A stretch of DNA of 64,000 bases, taken from contig NC_088937.1 in the NCBI RefSeq assembly GCF_033473495.1, positions 372,001 to 436,000 of the forward strand, read 5' to 3'. Below, piece after piece: positions 3,556 to 51,909 of the stretch. This DNA comes from Cercospora beticola. Its lineage: Eukaryota > Ascomycota > Dothideomycetes > Mycosphaerellales > Mycosphaerellaceae. A model generated the notes under the pieces. It saw only the letters and a list, made by a program, of their open reading frames with translations, was not told where the DNA came from and made no database searches. A program made the position numbers and the translations under genes. Numbering within the stretch: position 1 is the first letter of the stretch; every line of letters begins with the position of its first letter.

Positions 3556-6198
3556 TTTATACTGTTCCAGTTGCCCTTATGGAATTCAACGAACCAGGCA
3601 AAGTTCGAGGCTGCCTGAAGCCGTCGAAGATATTATTGACCTCTTCAGATCCACATACCTATAATTTTCTGCGCGCTCCGCTTGCAACTACTCCGCTGAA
3701 GGAGCCGAGGAGCATGTGCTCCGTTCAGCTGAAGCTAGCTTAAGCTCGGCAGGTCTTACAGAGGAAAATGACAATGACATCCTTCCTGCGATTCGACTCT
3801 GCTTCTCTAGTGATCACTGACTCAAGCGTGCCGAGTCGGCCCAAACAATGACATTCGTGAGCTCCAGCCGTTGCAAAAAGGATGAAATTGGCAAATGCTT
3901 CGATATCATAAGGATTGGATGAGGGGAAAGACCATTGCCAAGACATGGAGTTGCTTCGTCAGCCGACCTCATCGAATCCTGCTGTGCGCCCCAATTCCTG
4001 CCTGGCTTCCAACTGGATCCATCAAGCACTACGACCTACATAGCTTTTGAGGCCTCGATTTGCGTAGCGGCATCAGCACCGACAGCTTCTTGGACGTCAA
4101 AGCCTGAGCGGACCCTCTCGACATTGCCAAGATGCACTTGAATTTTCGAAGAAACACGGGTGGTAAATGCTTCGATGCCACCCCAAGCCTCTCATGAAAG
4201 CTCGAAGAACGCTTTCAGGACATTTCGCGGTTCCGGACACGTGAGCTGGAAGAGCCCATTCACCAGCGGTGCGGTCGTGGACTGCGATATTGCTGTGACC
4301 GATTTTCGCTCGTACCACTTGGTGTCTTCGAACAATTCTTCCTACGGGAGAACAGGGGTGGCCAGATCATGAGTCAAAGCTCAATCTGTCTCTTGAACTT
4401 GCCATGTTGAACTCGTGCGGCACACGGGGATCAACTGCGACGCGCCCTATTTCATGTGCTTCGAAAGAACAGGTCAACGAAATGCAAATCGAGATCGACC
4501 ACCAACATTCCGACTTCATTCAGGCTTGATCTCCCTTTCTGCTTGTGTGTGTGTGTCCTGTACACAGTTGGTGGACTGAAAAGCTCTGTCAACGTCCATT
4601 TCAAGTTCAGGAGCGAGCCGTCCCATCACAAAAGGATTAGCTTTCTGTCAGCCGAAGCTTGTTGGTAAACGCAAGGATTTGGATACAAAGGGCCGCTTGA
4701 AGATAACATCGCCCTAGACTTGACGCAGCTCGATCAGAGATCGAATTCTCCTACCACGAAGCATGAAATACGAGAAACATTGGCGCGGAAAACGATTTGG
4801 TGTTACGCTCGGTCTCAACTGCGCTGGTGCTACATCACGTGAAGGGCTCTGCTCATCTCTAATCACGTTTGCTCCAATCTCCTGCGCTCATTGATCCTGG
4901 CACACTGTTGTGAAGTGCTCCAAGCTTAACTCGACATGGGACCATGAGCGTCTGGGCTCAGAACTCTCGAACGGTGGGTTCGAGCAGTTGTAGACTCTGG
5001 CTTACCATCAAGTATAATCGATCGGGCACAAACATTAATCGTTGCGTATATTGCAGTGTGGATGACTACGTTCCTGTGCTCCTGCGGGATTCTTCACTGG
5101 CAGCTACCCAAGTGTCCGAATCAATAGGAGGTCAAGCTTTCGGGTAAACAACATCAACCTGCAGATCTTTGAGCAAGCAATCCTTGACTAGCAACCCGCA
5201 CAAAACCTAGCCTCACAAAGAGTCTCATTCTCGTCTTTCCGACTGCACAGGAGATGCTGGCGGTTGACCAAAGCCACAGTGCTCTCCAGAAGCTGTGCTC
5301 GGTGTTGCCAATGTTCAAAGACTTGTTGTCGACATTCCAGATTCCAGTCGCATCTCGGCGCAGAGATGGAAGTTTACCAGATGGTGACCGCCAAATCGAC
5401 CTAGGGCTTTGCTCGTTCCGCACACCAACCACATTTCCAACGAGCGGCCACCATGCCAACAGGGATCTATGGTCATGCAACATGGACAGATCCCTTTATC
5501 TCAATACCAGAATGATCAGCAGTGAAGTAGACGAATGTCCTCAACCAGAAACTGGAAGCCATACATCTGCCAAATCCGATGACCAATGGAGACTTGCTGT
5601 TCATTCCAGATGACGCTGTAGCTCTCTACCTTGCGTAGTAATCCTCACTTCGACCCACAGCTTCGCGCTTCACAGGGTACTGTCGATAGACTATTGTTCC
5701 TGCGTAATGCCATGGGTGACCCATTCTACCCAATGTGTCAACCAACGCGCTTCCCGCCGTTCTACGTGGGTATATCGACAAGGGCTAAGACGTTCATATT
5801 CAACCATCGACTACATGGCAAGGCAACCCACACACGTGTGCCGACGCAATCGAGACACCTGCTTTTTGGGGTCTTTCCAAGGCATCGCTACAGCTTTTCG
5901 ACGGCATTGCGCACCAAGACGGAGGAGCGAAACCCGCAATGCGCAAGGATTGCGAAAAGTTAAAGTCGAGATCTTCGAAGCTCTCGCCAGGCCACAACCA
6001 TGATCAAGGAGGGCATTCGTATCCTAGCTTGGCCGCCGGCACCTACATTTCTTCATCTGGTCCCCTCGTACAGTAGAGATCATCGAACTGACAAACACCT
6101 TCCTCTAACCGCTGTCGCACAAAGCTACGCCGCAATTCTGGGCTTCGACAGGACAACGTTCTACTCTGCGCAGTCAGGAAGGCGATGCTCACGCGAGA
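3556..6198. other. Long stretch without a clear gene; possible gene remnant on minus strand
   Basis: No frame with a recognisable domain. Between about 4340 and 3740 the minus strand has protein-like segments in more than one frame interrupted by stops (for example APLVNGLFQLTCPEPRNV, then a stop, then EAWGGIEAFTTRVSSK), which looks like a decayed gene. A (TG)n run lies near 4545. The rest shows nothing I can name. Confidence 0.35.
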
Positions 6199-25346: not shown

Positions 25347-26213
25347 TCACGCCGTAGCCTCCCACGCCGCTCTTAGATTGATGAATCCAGGCACAAATCC
25401 CGTCAACCCAATCATCGTCTCATTCATCGGACTCTCCTCACACCCATCATACCACCCCCAGTGCACCGCATTCGGGAACCAACCCAAATTCGAATACAAC
25501 TGCAACCACCACTTCTCCTCCAACTCCTGACTCTTCACCCCCACCACACCCTCCTTCTCCACCTGTTGTGCCCCAAACTCCTCATTCCACCTCAACTGCC
25601 TCACCCTCGCCAACCTCACAAACTCCAACAACACATCCGCAAACCAAAACTGCGAACTCACTGTCCACCACCCAGTCTCCCTCTTCGCAAACCGCTCCGA
25701 CCTCAACACTCCCTTCTTCACCAAATACGCCGCATTCTCATAAAACTGATACCCCGTCTGCGCCAAAATCTTCGCCCAAACAATACTCTTCAAGACGGGG
25801 TCCCGGCTCGGCCGCAAATAATTTTCCCTCGCTGCGGCGTAAATATCGACTAACCCGCGTAATCGCCAAAATGTTCGGACTTCATCGATTGCGTCTCCGA
25901 GGCTCTTGACTGCGACGCAAGTTTCTGTGAGCTGGAGGTGTGGAGGCTCGATTGTTGCGACGAAGGCTTCCCCCGGGAGGAGAGATTTTGAGGCATTTTG
26001 TGCGATGGTTTCGGCGAGGTTTTCGTACTTGCGACTCAGTATGCGGAGGAGTTGGGCGTGGGTGAAGGCGAGGGTGTAGAAGGCTGTGCAAAGGAGAGCG
26101 TCGCGGCCGGAGGCGGTGGAGAGGAGGCGGGAGAGGTGGGTGAGGAAGGTGTCGGTTCGATGGGGGAGGCGGTGGAGAAGCAGGTGTTTGAGTTGGGCTA
26201 TTGAGGTGGACAT
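25347..26213 (-). CDS. Peroxisomal biogenesis factor 11 family protein (PEX11C-like)
   Basis: Single exon, 288 residues. PEX11 proteins bend the peroxisomal membrane and drive its elongation and division. The C-terminal signature WLQLYSNLGWFPNAVHWG (near residue 243) and the central VWAKILAQTGYQFYENAAYL match the fungal PEX11C/GIM5-like subgroup better than yeast Pex11. The hydrophobic segments FTHAQLLRIL and LTGFVPGFINL fit a membrane-associated protein. A low-complexity hydrophobic N-terminus (LKHLLLHRLPHRTDTFL) is probably an amphipathic helix. Third-position GC bias is strong, which produces long antisense frames that are not genes. Confidence 0.85.
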   Translation of the reverse strand: MSTSIAQLKHLLLHRLPHRTDTFLTHLSRLLSTASGRDALLCTAFYTLAFTHAQLLRILSRKYENLAETIAQNASKSLLPGEAFVATIEPPHLQLTETCVAVKSLGDAIDEVRTFWRLRGLVDIYAAARENYLRPSRDPVLKSIVWAKILAQTGYQFYENAAYLVKKGVLRSERFAKRETGWWTVSSQFWFADVLLEFVRLARVRQLRWNEEFGAQQVEKEGVVGVKSQELEEKWWLQLYSNLGWFPNAVHWGWYDGCEESPMNETMIGLTGFVPGFINLRAAWEATA

Positions 26214-27708: not shown

Positions 27709-28396
27709 ATGGCTATCAGTACAGCAGCCCTCATAAGCTTCTCGCTCCTCATGACAAGCGCGACAGCACATCCTAACTCCTCGCCAACAGACCTCCCTTG
27801 CCTCACAAACGAAGAAACACAATCCATCGCCTCCAGATTCGTCACCCTCTTCACCACAGACCCAACAACAGGCAAAATCTTCAACGGCGAAGACTTCGTC
27901 CTCACCCTCGTAACGTCCGGCTTTCAATGGTACGCCGCGGACTCCTATGTCTGTAGCACTCCAGGCAAAAATGATTGTCACCTCGTCGGACCCGATCAGC
28001 CATTCCTGGACAGCAGAGACCGACTAATACAGTCGCTCAAAGGAACAAACGAATCGGATGCCAAAACACCTTACACAAATTACCAAACAAGCGTTCTACA
28101 TGCTTTTGCTAGCTGTGATGAGATCGCTATTAGATTCCATGGGACTGGAAAGGCTAATGCCCAGGCAGCAGCTGTGTAAGTATTGGTAATTTCTTTTGTA
28201 TCTTCATCAGCAATGCTGACTTTGGCTCAACATGACTGTTCTGCAAGACACACCTATCAAATGGCAAGGGACTATCTTGTTGCAGGTAGATTTGGAAACG
28301 AAACAAGTGGAGAAATCGGAGGCTTCGGAGGATACTTTGACAGTCCTGTCGCAACTCGGTGTCAAGAATCTTACCGAATATCTCTTTCAGTTGTAG
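27709..28396 (+). CDS. Secreted NTF2/SnoaL-like protein with a reading-frame problem
   Basis: Exon 1 (27709 to about 28175) starts with a signal peptide (MAISTAALISFSLLMTSATA) and continues as a SnoaL-like fold: ETQSIASRFVTLFTTDP, GFQWYAADSYVC, SVLHAFASCDEIAIRFHGTG. A GTAAGT donor follows at 28176. Past the likely acceptor (GCAAG at about 28247), the protein-like frame is the one reading TPIKWQGTILLQVDLETK and ending ...LTEYLFQL at 28396, which fits the C-terminal strands of this fold. The two parts differ by one base in phase whichever GT-AG pair I try. The spliced frame instead runs HTYQMARD... to a stop at 28413. So the gene carries a one-base frameshift or an unusual junction. Member of the island beside the RiPP-like locus. 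Confidence 0.5.
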
Positions 28397-28624
28397 CTTA
28401 CTTTGATGACTAGGGCTGGCAATGATATGGTGCGATGTTTGTGACAGGCCACAACCGATGAGGGTACTTTCAGCAATTCATTATCGGTACAAGTCACATC
28501 GTATCTCATCGATGGTGTCTCTCTGCTAAAGCTACAAGCAAGGTCAGAAAGCTAGGTACGCAAGTATGCTGACTATTTACTTCCTTGGTCTAGTTCATCT
28601 CATTCTCCAACAGCATATCGATCA

Positions 28625-29024
28625 TCACTCTTCGCGCTTGGTGTTCTCTGCAGCCTCCGGTGGAGTCCCAAGTTCTTCCAAGAAAGTAAGGCTCTGCTTC
28701 ACGCTTGGTGTTTTCGGCGGCCTCAGGTGGCGTCCAAGTCCTGCCCAAGAAGTAAGGCTCCGCTTCGCGCTTGGTATTTTCTGCAGCCTCCGGCGGAGTC
28801 CAGGTCCTGCCGAGGAAGTATGGCTCAGCTTCACGCTTTGTGTTCTCAGCAGCCTCAGGTGGAGTCCAAGTCCTGCCTAAGAATTACGGCTGCGCCTCAC
28901 GTCTGGTGTTCTCGGCGGCCTCTGGAGGCGTCCAAGTTCTTCCCAGGAAGTATGGATCACGCTTGGTGTTCTCTGCAGCCTCTGGAGGCGTCCAGGTTCT
29001 GCCCAAGAAGTAAGGCTCTGCCTC
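28625..29024 (-). repeat. Six tandem precursor units of 20-22 codons
   Basis: Units on the minus strand: 29024-28959 (66 bases), 28958-28899 (60, lacking the leading Glu-Ala-Glu), 28898-28833 (66, with the TAA), 28832-28767 (66), 28766-28701 (66) and 28700-28634 (67, with one extra base in the CCC of 28667-28669). After the last Lys-Arg the frame ends Glu-Glu-stop at 28625. The core PYFLGRTWTPPEAAENT is nearly invariant in protein while codons vary at third positions, so selection kept the peptide after duplication. Only units 1 and 2 are readable from the start codon. Confidence 0.9.
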
Positions 29025-29171
29025 ACGCTTGGCAGCGACGGGCGCCTCTGGAGAGCGGATCAGTCTTATGTAATGCATTCAATAGGATGCGACCTTGATC
29101 TCACCTTCGATTGGAAGAGCACTGGCAACAGCCATGAGCCCCGAAAGAGCTACGACACCAGAGAAGTGCAT
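28884..29171 (-). CDS. RiPP-like Kex2-repeat precursor peptide, truncated by a stop in repeat 3
   Basis: Exon 1 (29171-29105) encodes a signal peptide (MHFSGVVALSGLMAVASA). A 57-base intron (GTGAGA donor, TCCAG acceptor) leads to exon 2 from 29047. As written the protein is 76 residues: signal, short pro-segment ending AAKR, then units bounded by Lys-Arg or Arg-Arg. Unit 1 opens EAEPYFLGRTW and unit 2 DPYFLGRTW; both continue TPPEAAENT. A TAA at 28886-28884 replaces the Tyr codon of unit 3. The same frame continues in further units after it. KR plus Glu-Ala is the Kex2 and dipeptidyl-peptidase processing pattern. This architecture is that of dikaritin-type RiPP precursors and Kex2-processed repeat proteins. 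The UstYa gene lies head-to-head about 1.2 kb away. The peptide product is unknown. Confidence 0.75.
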
Positions 29172-29235
29172 GGTGCAAGTGGTACAACAAACTACCTGTG
29201 ACGATGAGATATGCTGTGGCTGAGAAACTCCAGAG

Positions 29236-29244
29236 CCTTTTATA
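29236..29244 (-). promoter_or_regulatory. TATA box of the precursor gene
   Basis: TATAAAAGG on the minus strand, 65 bases upstream of the precursor ATG. A near-consensus TATA box suggests the promoter was strong and tightly regulated. Confidence 0.5.
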
Positions 29245-30377
29245 TTCGCAGCAGGTAAATGCCTCGGTCGATACGGCTAACGTGACCATGCCGCTTTGCT
29301 TGATCGAGCACGGGATCGCACGTCAGACATGATAGACTCTAGTGTTTCGATCGCGCGGTAGCGAACACAAGTCACTCATAGCTCCAGCACATGAGACCAC
29401 GGCCCCTGCCTGCCCCAAAACTGCCCGGCTATGATGGTCATTGTCTCCTCCCTGTGATTCCAGATGGACAGATTGGAACGAGATGGTTGATCACATGAGT
29501 GGTCATGAGCGGACACGGACTCCTGCGGGAGGTTCATTGATGTAGCTCATTAAGAGCTATTGCGGAACTTCGCCTCACCACGGCCAGAGCACAAGATGGA
29601 ATCATAAGCGAGTGAATAGTCATCAAATTTGAACGTAGTGACATTCGATGTCTAGTATGCGAACACGAGCATGGTATGGTGCTGGCTGTTAGTTTCAGCT
29701 ACCGCTTCGTTTCGACTGTCACGAGGAGCGTTCAACGTGCTGCATCTAGTGATTTTATTCCCAACAGCATGCAATAGCAAGGGCCTAGACCACGAAGAAG
29801 TGATCCGGGCCCGAGGCAAGGCTTACGATGCTAGTACCGATGGGGCAATTCTATGTTGAGTGATCGAGATAAGCATCTACTCCACGGCAGCCTCACGTGG
29901 CCCTTTAGTCTATCATTCGCCGCCGTGGGACAATTTTGCAAATATTGTTAGGACAAAGTGGGTTTGATGATGACCTTTTACATACTCTGGCAATTTCGCA
30001 TAGTCGAACTGTCATCTAAAAGTGCGACTCTCGATTGTGGTTGATGAATACACGATCCGAGGCACTATCTTGTGCAAAACAAGCTCTGCCAAGGTGCCGT
30101 GCAGGCGTTGTTTAAGCGTTGTTTAGGCTTGTGTGGGCGTTTGCCGCTTCAAGGACTAATGGGTTTAGTTGGGAGACTAGAATTCAGCTTCGATGTGCTA
30201 GTCTCAGTGACCCAGGAACCTGCTATCTGGTACCGTGCGGAGAAATTATGGCACCACCCCACGGATTGCTTAACACGTTCCAGTGACTTCGCATGTCGAC
30301 CGAAGAGCCTTATCAAATGCCGCACGGAGTGGGACAATAGAATGGGGATTTTTCGGCATCGAATGCAAGACATCGAT
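29245..30377. other. Divergent region between precursor and UstYa genes
   Basis: About 1.1 kb with no convincing frame. It should contain the control region of both genes if they form one cluster. No obvious inverted repeat recognised by eye. Confidence 0.45.
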
Positions 30378-31475
30378 ATGCCGATGTTTCTGCGACATAC
30401 AAGTCTCAACTCCGGTTTCGAGTGAGAACAACACAGTCACCGTAACAATAGCAGATTCGTTAAGGAGTTCTGAAGAGGAAGTGTGGGATGATGAGAAAGA
30501 CACGCTTTTGTTCGAAGGCAAAGCCATTGGCCATCGTTCGCGTGTTTTCACTCGCACGAACATCCTCCTGGTGATTGTGCTACTTGCTTCAAATCTTATA
30601 TCAGTGCTCACGACATACTCCTTCACGGATCGACATGCCAGAAGCAAGTACTCTCAGGATTTGGAAGGCAGTAAGTTTCAGCAGACATGGTCATCTTTCT
30701 GTTAACAAATGCTCACGCTGATTTACTTTCAGCTGAAAAGGCCTATTCTCACCTCGACCGTTCATTGTCTCGGATGGACTTCAGCAACCACCGGCCAAAT
30801 GTAACAAGTCGTTGGAGTGCTCCTCCAAGCCCAGAAGTCGATGAGGCCTGGGATGAACTAGGTGTGAACGATCAAATTTTGGTGCTCCCAGAGAAGCTCG
30901 GTCGAGAAGTCTATAGCTTCGATCCAAGAATCCATGCGTATGCACCGGATAATTTTCTTGGAGAGGGAATTCCAGGAGGTTTCGGAGTCTTCGTTTAGGG
31001 CATGCATGATATGCACTGCTTGGTAAGTTTGAACTTGATCCTGTTCAGTCAACTTCTGCTAACGATAGATCAGAATGTGTTGCGAAAAGCAATATACTTC
31101 AACAAAGACTATTATCGCCAGTTCGAGAATGACACTTTGACTCCGGAGTGGGATAGGGTCAGCCACGTTCGTAAGTCCCGCTCGTCGTTCCACATTCCCA
31201 GTCCATGCTAATAAATTTCGATAGGACATTGTCTTGACAATATACGCGAGCGTATCATGTGCTCCGCAGATACTAGAGTCATTCCGACCGTATGGCTGAG
31301 TCAAGAAGAGAACTACCCTCTCTTCGGCCGAGAGCACAAATGCTACAGCTACGATGCAATGATGGACTAGTTTCGAGGATGGCACCAGAGTGAGCCAAAC
31401 CGCAGAATAGATTGGAATCGCCATCTGTCGGCGCCTCCGGATGCAGTCTTCACGAGCTACGACGATATAGCATAG
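30378..31475 (+). pseudogene. UstYa/DUF3328-family oxidase, interrupted by two in-frame stops
   Basis: UstYa proteins are membrane-anchored copper-dependent oxidases that cyclise or modify RiPP core peptides. Best model, five exons: 30378-30421, 30465-30670, 30733-31022, 31074-31170, 31225-31475. The last three introns have GTAAGT donors. A transmembrane helix (NILLVIVLLASNLISVL) is followed by a luminal domain with AWDELGVNDQILVLPE, the first HxxHC motif (HDMHC, 31005-31019) and the second (HCLDNIRERIMCSAD, from 31227). Both motifs are intact. TAG at 30996-30998, just before HDMHC, and TAG at 31368-31370 interrupt the frame; coding sequence continues after each, to a final stop at 31473-31475. 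The start exon is the least certain part (43-base intron). Family call is firm; activity is doubtful as written. Confidence 0.8.
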
Positions 31476-31499
31476 TTGTGTATAAGTCTTTGAAGGAAC

Positions 31500-32560
31500 T
31501 GATTGATTATAGATAGATAGATAATTCTTATACGCTGGTCTACCTCTTTTAACTAGAGTAAGCAGCACGCTCTATATTTTTCGTAGGTAGAAAAGCCCTC
31601 GTGCTAGTACTCCGGTAGAAAAACCTCCTTATATCTTTATATTTTATAGTAAGCTCTATATAGCCTGCCGCTTCCGTAGTTTCTAGTTCTCCTTAGGACA
31701 ATTTGCGTTATCTTAATAGTTTAGATCCTTTATAGTAGTTCTCCTTAGTTGTTTCTTATATTATTAGTACTTAGGAGCCCGATCCTCTTATCTACTAGCT
31801 TAGAGACTTAAGCCTATATATATAGTCTTAGTCCCTACGCTAGTATCTATATTAATCCTATATCTAACTCTTTCTTACTAGTTCCTAGAGTAGGTATTTC
31901 CCTATATAAATCCTACTTAGATTTTAACCTTCCTTAGTACCTAGTTATATAACCTATATCTAGAGAAATTCTAGTTTTTATAGAATATCTAGAATAGTAG
32001 GTATCTTTATAGGCAGCTCTAAGTATAGTATAGAGTTAGATAGCTTATATTAGATGCTCTACCTTTAGACTTAAGGTTTCTAGAGGGCTCTAGAGTAGGG
32101 GGACTAGTCTACCTTAGAGTCTCCTATTTAGACAAAAGGCTCCTAGTAGCTAATTGTCCTAGTATTTATAGAGGTACTACTATTCCTTTCTTCTATTTCT
32201 ACTATCCTTGCTCTTTCTTATTAAAGCCTTCCCTTAGGTATACTTAGTTCCTCCTCTTTAGCCTATTTAGAGCCTAGGTTACTACTCTAGCCTCTAGACT
32301 TATAGTAGCATTTACTACCTAGAAGGGCTATCCCGTAGTCGAGTATTAGAATCTTATAGTAGTTGTACCGCGCTAGCGTCGTCTTCGTGTTCTTAGGAGC
32401 TCTCTAATCTCCCTAGGTCGAAATTCTAGACTTTTTTATCGCCTTCTTCCTACCTCTATAGGTGCCTAGCCGCCCTATACTTTGCTAGCATAGCCGAAGC
32501 TATCTGTTTCTACCTGCGACCGCGTAGAGGTATGCAATGGGACTTCGCAGGCACTGATTA
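31500..32560. mobile_element. AT-rich, TA-rich RIP-like degenerate repeat
   Basis: Composition changes abruptly from balanced to strongly A+T-rich with very many TA, CTAG, TTAG and TATA strings, stops in every frame and few CA/TG dinucleotides, the usual footprint of repeat-induced point mutation on a transposon copy. No open frame of any length survives, so the element type cannot be named. It begins with an (AGAT)n run at about 31510 just after the UstYa gene and ends near 32560, where normal composition returns. Edges are by eye. Confidence 0.7.
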
Positions 32561-32678
32561 ATTATATGTACATCCTATAACTACTGTCAGCTATTGTTCA
32601 AACGCTTTGCGTGGATGAGATCCCATAGTAAATGCCCACAGTATGTCCTATCCATCAGTTCTAACAGTCCATAGGATG

Positions 32679-50677: not shown

Positions 50678-51909
50678 ATGCATTTTTACACAGTCGTGGC
50701 GTTGGCCGCCATCGCCACATCGGCCAATGCTCAATTGCCAGGTCTCGGTGGACTTGGTGGAGCAGCCGCCGCGCCAGCTGCGCCGAAGGCCAAATTGACG
50801 GCCCAAGAAGTGAAGGCGAGCATTGAAGAGATCACTGATAAGGCCGCCGATACCGAAGTCATCGCTCAACGCATCAAGAGCAAGGCTGACGGCTTTCAAG
50901 TCGGTCCCGTGCGTTCATGAAGCTTGTTACATTTCCGTGTCTATCTGGAAACTAATGTTCGCGCTAGGAGCTTATTGTTAGCATCAAGGAGATCAACCAG
51001 CTCTTCACCAAAGAGAGCGAGGCTTTGGCGGCGCAGGATGATCTGCCGGAGGCGCCAGAGTTGAAGGAGCCTGAAGCTGCGGAGCCAGCACTGGATAGGC
51101 GACAGCTGCCTGTCGATGCCTTAAGCGGCCTTCTGGGCCAGAAGAAGGCTCCCGGCAAAGCACCAGCAGACAAGCGCCAGCTACCTGTCGGCGCCTTGGG
51201 CGGTCTCTTGGGTCAAAAGACGGCCCCAGGCAAAGCGGCAGGAGAGAAACGACAGCTCCCTGTCGGCGCGTTGGGCGGCCTCTTGGGCCAGAAGGAAGCT
51301 CCTGCTAAAGGTAAAAAGGGAGAGAAACGACAGCTGCCTCTCAACGCTGTGAGCGGTCTCTTGGGCCAGAAGGAAGCACCTGCCAAAGCACCGAAAGAGA
51401 CCCCAGCCAAAGCAGAAAAGGAAGCTACCGGCAAGGCCCAGAAGACAGCACCTGCTAAGGCCCAAAAAGCAGCACCTGCTAAGGCACTGAAGGGAGCACC
51501 TGTCAAAGCACAAGAGCAGAAACGTCAACTCCCTGGTCTCCCTCTTCCGGGCTTGGATAGCGTCACAAACACCCTCTCCCCAGGCAAGCCCGAAGCATCA
51601 GCAGATGAGCCCGTGCTTGAGCAGGTCTTCTTCGCCGTCGAAGATCAAGCCGAGATATGCTACGCCTTCACCGACTTGACCAAGGTTCACGAGATGATGC
51701 TCAAGACTGTCATCGAGAAGCGCGAGTTCTTCACTTTCAACACGATCACTGCCCAGACTGCTAAGATTCTGCGTCTCCTTGAACGCGAATTCGATGAGTT
51801 TGCGGCGGTGCTCATTGAATCTGTTCCAACTTGTGCGTTCAGCGTCAAGCAGGACCAACAGAAGATGGAGAAGACCATGAAGAAGTCCATCGAGACTTTC
51901 ACCTTGTAG
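50678..51909 (+). CDS. HsbA-like secreted protein split by Kex2-type repeat units
   Basis: Exons 50678-50908 and 50968-51909 give 390 residues with a signal peptide (MHFYTVVALAAIATSANA). Residues about 40-105 (LTAQEVKASIEEITDKAADT, and after the intron ELIVSIKEINQLFTKESEAL) and about 285-390 (LEQVFFAVEDQAEICYAFTDL, FNTITAQTAKILRLLEREFDEF) together look like one helical HsbA domain, the hydrophobic surface-binding protein family. Between the halves lie four units opening with dibasic RR or KR followed by QLPVGALGGLLGQK-type sequence, a Lys/Ala/Pro-rich stretch and a fifth degenerate KRQLPGLPLPG. Kex2 cutting would release amphipathic peptides with an N-terminal Gln able to form pyroglutamate. 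No oxidase gene is nearby. Likely a surface-active secreted protein. Confidence 0.78.
51103..51405 (+). repeat. Four tandem dibasic-bounded units of 25-26 codons
   Basis: Units begin at 51103, 51178, 51253 and 51331, spacing 75, 75 and 78 bases. Each starts with Gln-Leu-Pro directly after Arg-Arg or Lys-Arg and carries the near-invariant core LLGQK, then a variable Lys/Ala/Pro spacer. A remnant KRQLPG recurs at about 51520. The core is kept while the spacers differ. Confidence 0.85.

What the first reader, a model, noticed from the sequence alone, without database searches (positions are those of the whole stretch)
28625..31475. Candidate undescribed dikaritin-type RiPP locus: Kex2-repeat precursor head-to-head with a UstYa gene
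Seen: a secreted precursor with six 20-22-residue units, each bounded by Lys-Arg (once Arg-Arg) and carrying PYFLGRTWTPPEAAENT, and 1.2 kb away in divergent orientation a DUF3328/UstYa gene with both HxxHC motifs. Known: this pair is the hallmark of ustiloxin, phomopsin, asperipin and epichloecyclin clusters, where UstYa oxidases cyclise aromatic core residues. Inference: Tyr, Phe and Trp of the PYFLGRTW core are the likely crosslinking sites, and a new cyclic peptide was made by this lineage. I know no precursor with this core. No tyrosinase-like or methyltransferase gene was found next to it, so the cluster would be minimal or partly lost.
Basis: partly seen in the sequence, partly recalled or inferred. 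Interest (0 to 1): 0.92.

Follow-up and report, generated by a model that had tools for sequence, protein, structure and literature searches.

The report
Decayed fungal peptide gene pair
A fungus close to or identical with the sugar-beet leaf-spot fungus carries a secreted repeat-peptide gene next to a gene for a peptide-modifying copper enzyme; the pairing is a known kind and recurs elsewhere in this genome, but this copy is broken.

Summary
The pair is real. On the minus strand (29171-28625) lies a secreted Kex2-processed repeat protein (KEP) of six units; head to head with it lies a UstYa/DUF3328 gene (about 30412-31475) with both HxxHC motifs. Five units keep an identical 15-residue core although at least 17 nucleotide changes separate them, all synonymous: the peptide was under purifying selection. 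The genome is Cercospora beticola or a close relative: a C. beticola record has the identical 76-residue product, ending at the same residue. Both genes are damaged here, and the neighbouring NTF2-like gene probably is. A KEP-like array with a head-to-head UstYa match recurs at 5 of 20 other UstYa places examined, so the pairing is unlikely to be chance; it is a known kind (22% of surveyed fungal KEPs). New here: the unit, not found outside C. beticola in two protein searches nor in one paper search, and its spacers, made only of X-Ala/X-Pro dipeptides. That Ste13 (pheromone-type) signature is reported absent from ustiloxin, phomopsin and epichloecyclin precursors, though pheromone-like KEPs beside DUF3328 genes have precedents. 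The mature unit probably starts at Tyr (YFLGRTWTPPEAAENT). Crosslinking is inferred. Verdict: a decayed new member of a known kind.

The parts
28625..29171 (-). Kex2-processed repeat precursor gene, broken: six units, in-frame stop in unit 3, frame shift in unit 6
   Evidence: P0001 identical over its 76 residues
29048..29104 (-). 57-nt GT..AG intron of the precursor gene
   Evidence: the C. beticola protein P0001 fits the same splice
28992..29171 (-). signal-peptide-like start (MHFSGVVALSGLMAVASALPIEEAPVAAKR) and first unit start
   Evidence: by eye, no signal-peptide program was run
28593..28883 (-). open frame after the internal stop (rest of unit 3 to unit 6, 97 aa)
30412..31475 (+). UstYa/DUF3328 gene, broken: introns 30671-30732, 31023-31073, 31171-31224 (read by eye); in-frame TAG 30996-30998 and TAG 31368-31370; start codon not found
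31005..31019 (+). HxxHC motif 1 (HDMHC)
31164..31232 (+). HxxHC motif 2 (HVRHC), split by the last intron
   Evidence: (exon pieces), junction read by eye
29172..30411 (.). divergent intergenic stretch of about 1.2 kb, presumed shared promoter region
   Evidence: head-to-head arrangement also at five other loci
27709..28413 (+). neighbouring secreted NTF2-like gene, probably broken at its intron; membership of the cluster not shown
   Evidence: (C. kikuchii and C. berteroae relatives); no Pfam match of its own
31512..32552 (.). dispersed RIP-like element of about 1.05 kb behind UstYa, between direct repeats 31498-31511 and 32553-32566 (14 bp, one mismatch)

Best explanation
This is the remnant of a small KEP-UstYa peptide pathway. 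When whole, a secreted precursor was cut by Kex2 after Lys-Arg/Arg-Arg; X-Ala/X-Pro dipeptides (EAEP, DP, EAQP) were trimmed by a Ste13-type dipeptidyl peptidase; this gave six copies of YFLGRTWTPPEAAENT. The divergently transcribed membrane copper enzyme UstYa oxidised the peptide, most likely at Tyr1 and/or Trp7. In this lineage the locus has decayed: the precursor stops after two whole units, UstYa is interrupted before its copper site, and the NTF2-like neighbour is probably broken. Shown: the anatomy, the damage, past purifying selection on the unit, the recurrence of the head-to-head pairing in this genome, and the presence of Kex2-type and dipeptidyl-peptidase genes. Inferred: processing, UstYa as modifier, site and kind of modification, loss of function.
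For: Units: five 15-codon cores differ by at least 17 nucleotide changes in 13 of 45 columns, none changing a residue; naive chance 2e-11 (unit 6 left out). Spacers of all six units consist only of XA/XP dipeptides. One Kex2-type P-domain match; five DPPIV-type matches, two of them strong and full-length. UstYa profile match and motifs. Pairing: 6 of 21 UstYa places examined have a KEP-like array, all 6 with a head-to-head UstYa match, which is the nearest one in 5 of 6. All six cores contain Tyr. A C. beticola protein on a contig of different length (4,201,081 against 4,239,515 bp) ends at the same residue, so the unit-3 stop is probably there too (its DNA was not seen). Published: DUF3328 genes peak right beside KEP genes (PMC7329392, section 7); a DUF3328 enzyme uses the HxxHC pair as a copper site and loses activity when it is mutated (PMC12435403, passages).
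Against: The Ste13 signature is said to be generally dedicated to alpha pheromones in Ascomycota and absent from the toxic cyclic peptides' and epichloecyclin precursors (PMC6339444). No product, expression or co-expression data. No intact copy of either gene was found. UstYa damage rests on one assembly and on gene models read by eye. Only 21 of 34 UstYa places were examined, three of them not picked at random, and no random-region control was run.
Confidence: 0.6

Rival explanations
1. The repeat protein made linear peptide hormones or effectors (pheromone-like, Kex2/Ste13-processed), and the UstYa gene next to it served another substrate or none.
For: Clean Ste13 signature in all six units; PMC6339444 calls such KEPs good hormone candidates (passage); 78% of surveyed KEPs have no DUF3328 gene nearby; the precursor still encodes two whole units although UstYa is broken.
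Against: A head-to-head UstYa match is present at 6 of 6 KEP-UstYa places found in this genome, one of which (L036) has the same Ste13 signature. Only 3 of 216 KEPs of the fungal-pheromone group, and none of 227 of the yeast alpha-factor group, have DUF3328 neighbours (PMC7329392 section 8).
Confidence: 0.22
2. It is the alpha sexual pheromone precursor of this fungus.
For: Architecture (signal peptide, repeats, KR-EAEP spacers) matches; two exact DNA-pattern searches for the two-cysteine WCxxxGQxC type gave 0 and 9 matches (3 for the reversed control pattern), and none of the 8 of 9 that I read is a repeat precursor.
Against: The unit has no cysteine and no PYGxPxG, the two dothideomycete pheromone types (PMC6339444 section 8); it is damaged; a UstYa gene is adjacent.
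Confidence: 0.05
3. The genes still work: the stops are spliced out, read through or assembly errors.
For: The truncated precursor still has two whole units; UstYa gene models were read by eye; the second TAG lies near the end of the profile.
Against: A C. beticola protein record on another contig ends at the same residue; damage of different kinds hits neighbouring genes as well.
Confidence: 0.1

Closest known systems
KEPs accompanied by DUF3328 genes (Umemura 2020, PMC7329392; abstract, sections 7 and 8 and passages seen)
   Same: Secreted precursor with Kex2-bounded repeats, DUF3328 gene adjacent, Tyr in the repeat, tyrosinase usually absent
   Different: New unit sequence; Ste13-type spacers; both genes broken
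Asperipin-2a type dikaritin (single UstY gene; from passages of PMC12048977 and section 7 of PMC7329392)
   Same: One UstYa gene, small cluster
   Different: No reductase or other partner found next to it; core unrelated as far as recalled; product unknown
Pheromone-like KEPs with a DUF3328 gene nearby (Rutstroemia Ccg-4 homologue, 2 genes away; 17 of 76 KEPs related to putative Basidiomycota pheromones; PMC7329392 section 8 and passages)
   Same: Pheromone-type precursor near DUF3328
   Different: Their sequences were not compared here; a head-to-head arrangement is not stated in the passages; other fungal groups
Ascomycete alpha-pheromone precursors (PMC6339444, section 8 and passages)
   Same: Kex2 plus Ste13 (XA/XP) processing signature, repeated identical peptide
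   Different: No cysteines, no PYGxPxG; UstYa gene adjacent
L036 locus of the same genome (C7:42000-48500), units (K)R-DA/EP/NA-QFYPVYG
   Same: KEP with Ste13-type spacers, head to head with a UstYa match
   Different: 16 in-frame unit motifs in an open frame of 285 aa; different core

Membership tests
Kex2-processed repeat protein (KEP) | Signal peptide and several near-identical repeats bounded by KR/RR | tested here: met
   signal peptide by eye only
Dikaritin-type RiPP (ustiloxin, phomopsin, asperipin) | DUF3328/UstYa gene with HxxHC(x)nHxxHC beside the precursor gene | tested here: met
   but the gene is interrupted before motif 1
Dikaritin-type RiPP (ustiloxin, phomopsin, asperipin) | Aromatic residue (Tyr) in the repeated core | tested here: met
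   five of six units
Dikaritin-type RiPP (ustiloxin, phomopsin, asperipin) | Precursor without Ste13 (XA/XP) signature, as described for the known ones in PMC6339444 | tested here: not met
   six of six spacers are XA/XP dipeptides. This is a description of few known members, not an agreed criterion.
Dikaritin-type RiPP (ustiloxin, phomopsin, asperipin) | Tyrosinase, methyltransferase, transporter or peptidase in the cluster (not all present in every known cluster) | tested here: not met
   nearest tyrosinase match on the contig lies 3.3 Mb away; no such domain among the window ORFs scanned within 10 kb (not every ORF was scanned)
Dikaritin-type RiPP (ustiloxin, phomopsin, asperipin) | Crosslinked cyclic product | not testable with these tools
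   needs mass spectrometry
Ascomycete alpha pheromone | Two cysteines or PYGxPxG in the mature peptide | tested here: not met
   unit sequence against PMC6339444 section 8
Ascomycete alpha pheromone | Kex2 site followed by XA/XP dipeptides | tested here: met

The most novel reading that the evidence does not exclude
A hybrid kind of fungal peptide: pheromone-style precursors, trimmed by Kex2 and a Ste13-type peptidase to an exact N-terminus, that are then oxidised by a divergently transcribed UstYa copper enzyme. Two loci of this genome (window and L036) show both signatures; they would be concrete intermediates for the published proposal (PMC7329392) that cyclic KEP peptides arose from linear ones, and this copy would show such a pathway being lost. 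Precedents for pheromone-like KEPs near DUF3328 genes exist (Rutstroemia; 17 of 76 KEPs related to putative Basidiomycota pheromones), so the idea is not without forerunners.
Probability: 0.25. Interest if true: 0.48.

Novelty: new member of a known kind. Interest (0 to 1): 0.32.

Why it matters
If right, it adds an unreported peptide unit to the KEP-UstYa family in a crop-pathogen genus, shows clear Ste13-type spacers together with an adjacent UstYa gene in an ascomycete, and gives a case of such a pathway decaying, with five sister pairs in the same genome for comparison (their integrity was not checked). The broken copy itself probably makes no modified product; the sister loci are the better test.

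Tried and rejected
Rejected: RIP as a proven cause of the UstYa stops. The element behind the gene looks RIP-mutated (TpA/ApT 2.15) but the UstYa gene does not (0.62; window 0.60). Rejected: recent duplication of the pair; no second copy in the genome. Rejected: shared cassette with the NTF2-like gene; no match at E<=1 in the 17 loci L015-L031 (L035-L037 not tested), though it seems to decay too. Rejected: the 51-kb KR-repeat protein as part of this cluster (about 19 kb from UstYa). My first reading of the NTF2-like gene's last exon was in the wrong frame, as the alignment with relatives showed; the query carries that error. On checking the draft I found that section 8 of PMC7329392, which I had read, does report pheromone-like KEPs near DUF3328 genes; a statement that I had seen no such case was taken out, the passages were read again, and the interest of the novel reading was lowered from 0.55 to 0.48 and the overall interest from 0.33 to 0.32.

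Dead ends: the pheromone pattern searches gave no candidate; no paper in the held library contains the string YFLGRTW; the two papers that hold both Cercospora beticola and DUF3328 were seen as listings only. The KEP scans were two: the strict one, at three or more units, found L017 alone among the 17 loci; the looser one added L019, L021, L035 and L036, and also listed arrays that I judged by eye to be low-complexity or wrong-frame (L021 minus strand, L027, L028, other frames of L017, L035 and L036). L019's units are bounded by KK or RK, not KR.

Full report
What was checked. The window is contig C3:372001-436000 of a 36.07-Mb fungal assembly in 10 contigs. The minus strand from 29171 encodes a signal-peptide-like start, a 57-nt intron (29104-29048) and six units bounded by KR or RR. 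Units 1, 2, 4 and 5 read PYFLGRTWTPPEAAENT in frame. Unit 3 has an in-frame stop at the start of its core. In unit 6 the frame shifts by one base after FLGRTW. TRF scores the array 424 and 500 at two periods. The spliced product up to the stop, 76 residues, is identical to P0001, an unnamed Cercospora beticola protein on a 4,201,081-bp contig; contig C3 here has 4,239,515 bp, so the records differ, though they could be two assemblies of one strain. That the stop is in that record too follows from where its protein ends; I did not see its DNA. The genome is therefore C. beticola or very near it.

The UstYa gene. PF11807 matches the plus strand at 30783-31367 with 97.5 bits over profile 65-215; the last exon piece alone gives 3.4e-13 and the exon-2 piece 20 bits, below the cut-off of 25; the exon-1 and exon-3 pieces match nothing. 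Introns at 30671-30732, 31023-31073 and 31171-31224 were read by eye. Motif 1 is HDMHC and motif 2 HVRHC across the last junction. A TAG at 30996-30998 lies before motif 1, so a protein ending there would lack the copper site that the DUF3328 enzyme CctR needs (PMC12435403, passages). A second TAG at 31368-31370 lies at about the end of the profile and may be the natural end. I found no in-frame ATG back to 30300. The stretches that match it in the 17 other loci then held share 28-63% identity over 15-53 residues, so this is no recent duplicate of those.

Selection on the unit. Over 15 codons, five in-frame cores (unit 6 left out) differ in 13 of 45 columns by at least 17 changes and in no residue; if changes fell at random over sites the chance is about 2e-11. 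The estimate ignores transition bias and exchange between units, but it says that the peptide was kept while the DNA drifted. The damage is therefore later than most of the divergence between units.

Processing. All six spacers between the dibasic site and the core are EAEP (4), EAQP (1) or DP (1), that is one or two X-Ala/X-Pro dipeptides. Such spacers are the Ste13 signature of alpha-factor-type precursors (PMC6339444, passages). The genome has one P-domain (Kex2-type) match and five DPPIV-type matches, two of them strong and full-length.

Is the pairing meaningful? PF11807 has 63 exon-level matches in the genome (a lower bound), which I grouped by eye into 34 places. I examined 21: the window, 17 stretches of 10 kb and three of 6.5-7 kb (chosen from the remaining places, not at random). 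KEP-like arrays lie at 6 of 21: the window, L017 (EVPYEVGLTYADYG), L019 (DVAKPDYQYLV, bounded by KK or RK), L021 (QYIGVPYAYYNNY), L035 (AYKFFSDGPYGG) and L036 (QFYPVYG, 16 motifs). Each has a UstYa match head to head with the array; it is the nearest UstYa match in 5 of 6, while at L017 the nearest is tail to tail. All six cores contain Tyr. I ran no control on random stretches; the rest of the window has one further KR-repeat protein (50968-51909) with no UstYa close by. In a published survey 1758 of 7878 KEPs (22%) have a DUF3328 gene among the 15 nearest genes, with a peak at the adjacent position (PMC7329392, section 7).

Where it departs from known members. PMC6339444 (passages; section 8) states that the Ste13 signature is absent from precursors of the toxic cyclic peptides and of epichloecyclins, and is generally dedicated to alpha pheromones in Ascomycota. 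Here it occurs at two KEP-UstYa pairs, the window and L036 (15 of 16 L036 units have DA, EP or NA, one has none), and not at L017, L019, L021 or L035. This combination has forerunners: PMC7329392 (section 8; passages) reports three of 216 KEPs of its fungal-pheromone group with a DUF3328 gene within 15 genes, one of them (Rutstroemia) two genes away and discussed as a pheromone turning cyclic, and 17 of 76 KEPs related to putative Basidiomycota pheromones. It is the one paper of the held library that contains both STE13 and DUF3328 as words. The unit here has no cysteine and no PYGxPxG, so it is neither of the two dothideomycete pheromone types.

Surroundings and decay. The neighbour 27709-28413 has relatives of 209 residues in C. 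kikuchii and C. berteroae (named NTF2-like; 74 and 72% identity in the alignment), but its downstream part cannot, by eye, be joined in their frame with the intron ends that I could read, and P0004, an entry without name on a contig of the same length as P0001's, is cut to 107 residues. The window's own protein matches no Pfam family. These two relatives also show that proteins of both species are in the searched collection, in which no precursor with this unit was found outside C. beticola (97-residue query, 440 candidates, one hit, artificial array, the 8000 candidates sharing most words, none). Small repeat proteins are often left unannotated, so absence there is weak. Behind UstYa sits a dispersed element of about 1.05 kb: besides the window's own copy, 39 others at 87-94% identity over nearly its whole length were listed, and only 40 of 195 candidates were scored. 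It is flanked by a 14-bp direct repeat with one mismatch (31498-31511 and 32553-32566) and looks RIP-mutated, while UstYa does not. PEX11 at 25347-26213 is an open frame. No tyrosinase match lies nearer than 3.3 Mb on the contig.

Verdict. A real, formerly selected KEP-UstYa pair that has decayed in this lineage; a new member of a known kind with one unusual trait (Ste13-type spacers). That UstYa crosslinked Tyr, Phe or Trp is plausible and untested. Interest is moderate, and lies more in the five sister pairs, whose integrity I did not check, than in this copy.

Noticed in passing
L036 (G000:C7:42000-48500) 392-1249 minus: KEP with 16 in-frame QFYPVYG motifs, spacers DA/EP/NA (Ste13-type), head to head with a UstYa match that has both HxxHC motifs; about 42 kb from a contig end.
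   Followed up: partly
L017 (G000:C9:616000-625999) 4685-5485 plus: KEP-like array with units EVPYEVGLTYADYGREG between two UstYa matches; the frame is interrupted inside the array, probably by introns.
   Followed up: partly
L019 3527-4030 minus; L021 9380-9712 plus; L035 6485-6943 plus: Three more KEP-like arrays head to head with UstYa matches (DVAKPDYQYLV; QYIGVPYAYYNNY; AYKFFSDGPYGG). A tyrosinase fragment match lies at C4:56048-56287, about 7.5 kb beyond the L035 stretch.
   Followed up: partly
window 50968-51909 plus: Another KR-bounded repeat protein (RQLPVGALGGLLGQK units, 4 copies) with a weak HsbA match behind it (E 0.0046, below cut-off); no UstYa nearby.
   Followed up: no
window 31512-32552: Dispersed RIP-like element of about 1.05 kb, at least 40 copies with this one, with an (ATCT)n-like end and a 14-bp direct repeat at its flanks, suggestive of a non-LTR or SINE-like element.
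   Followed up: partly
window 27709-28413 plus: Secreted NTF2-like gene, 209 residues in C. kikuchii and C. berteroae but apparently broken here; whether it belonged to the KEP-UstYa cluster is open.
   Followed up: partly
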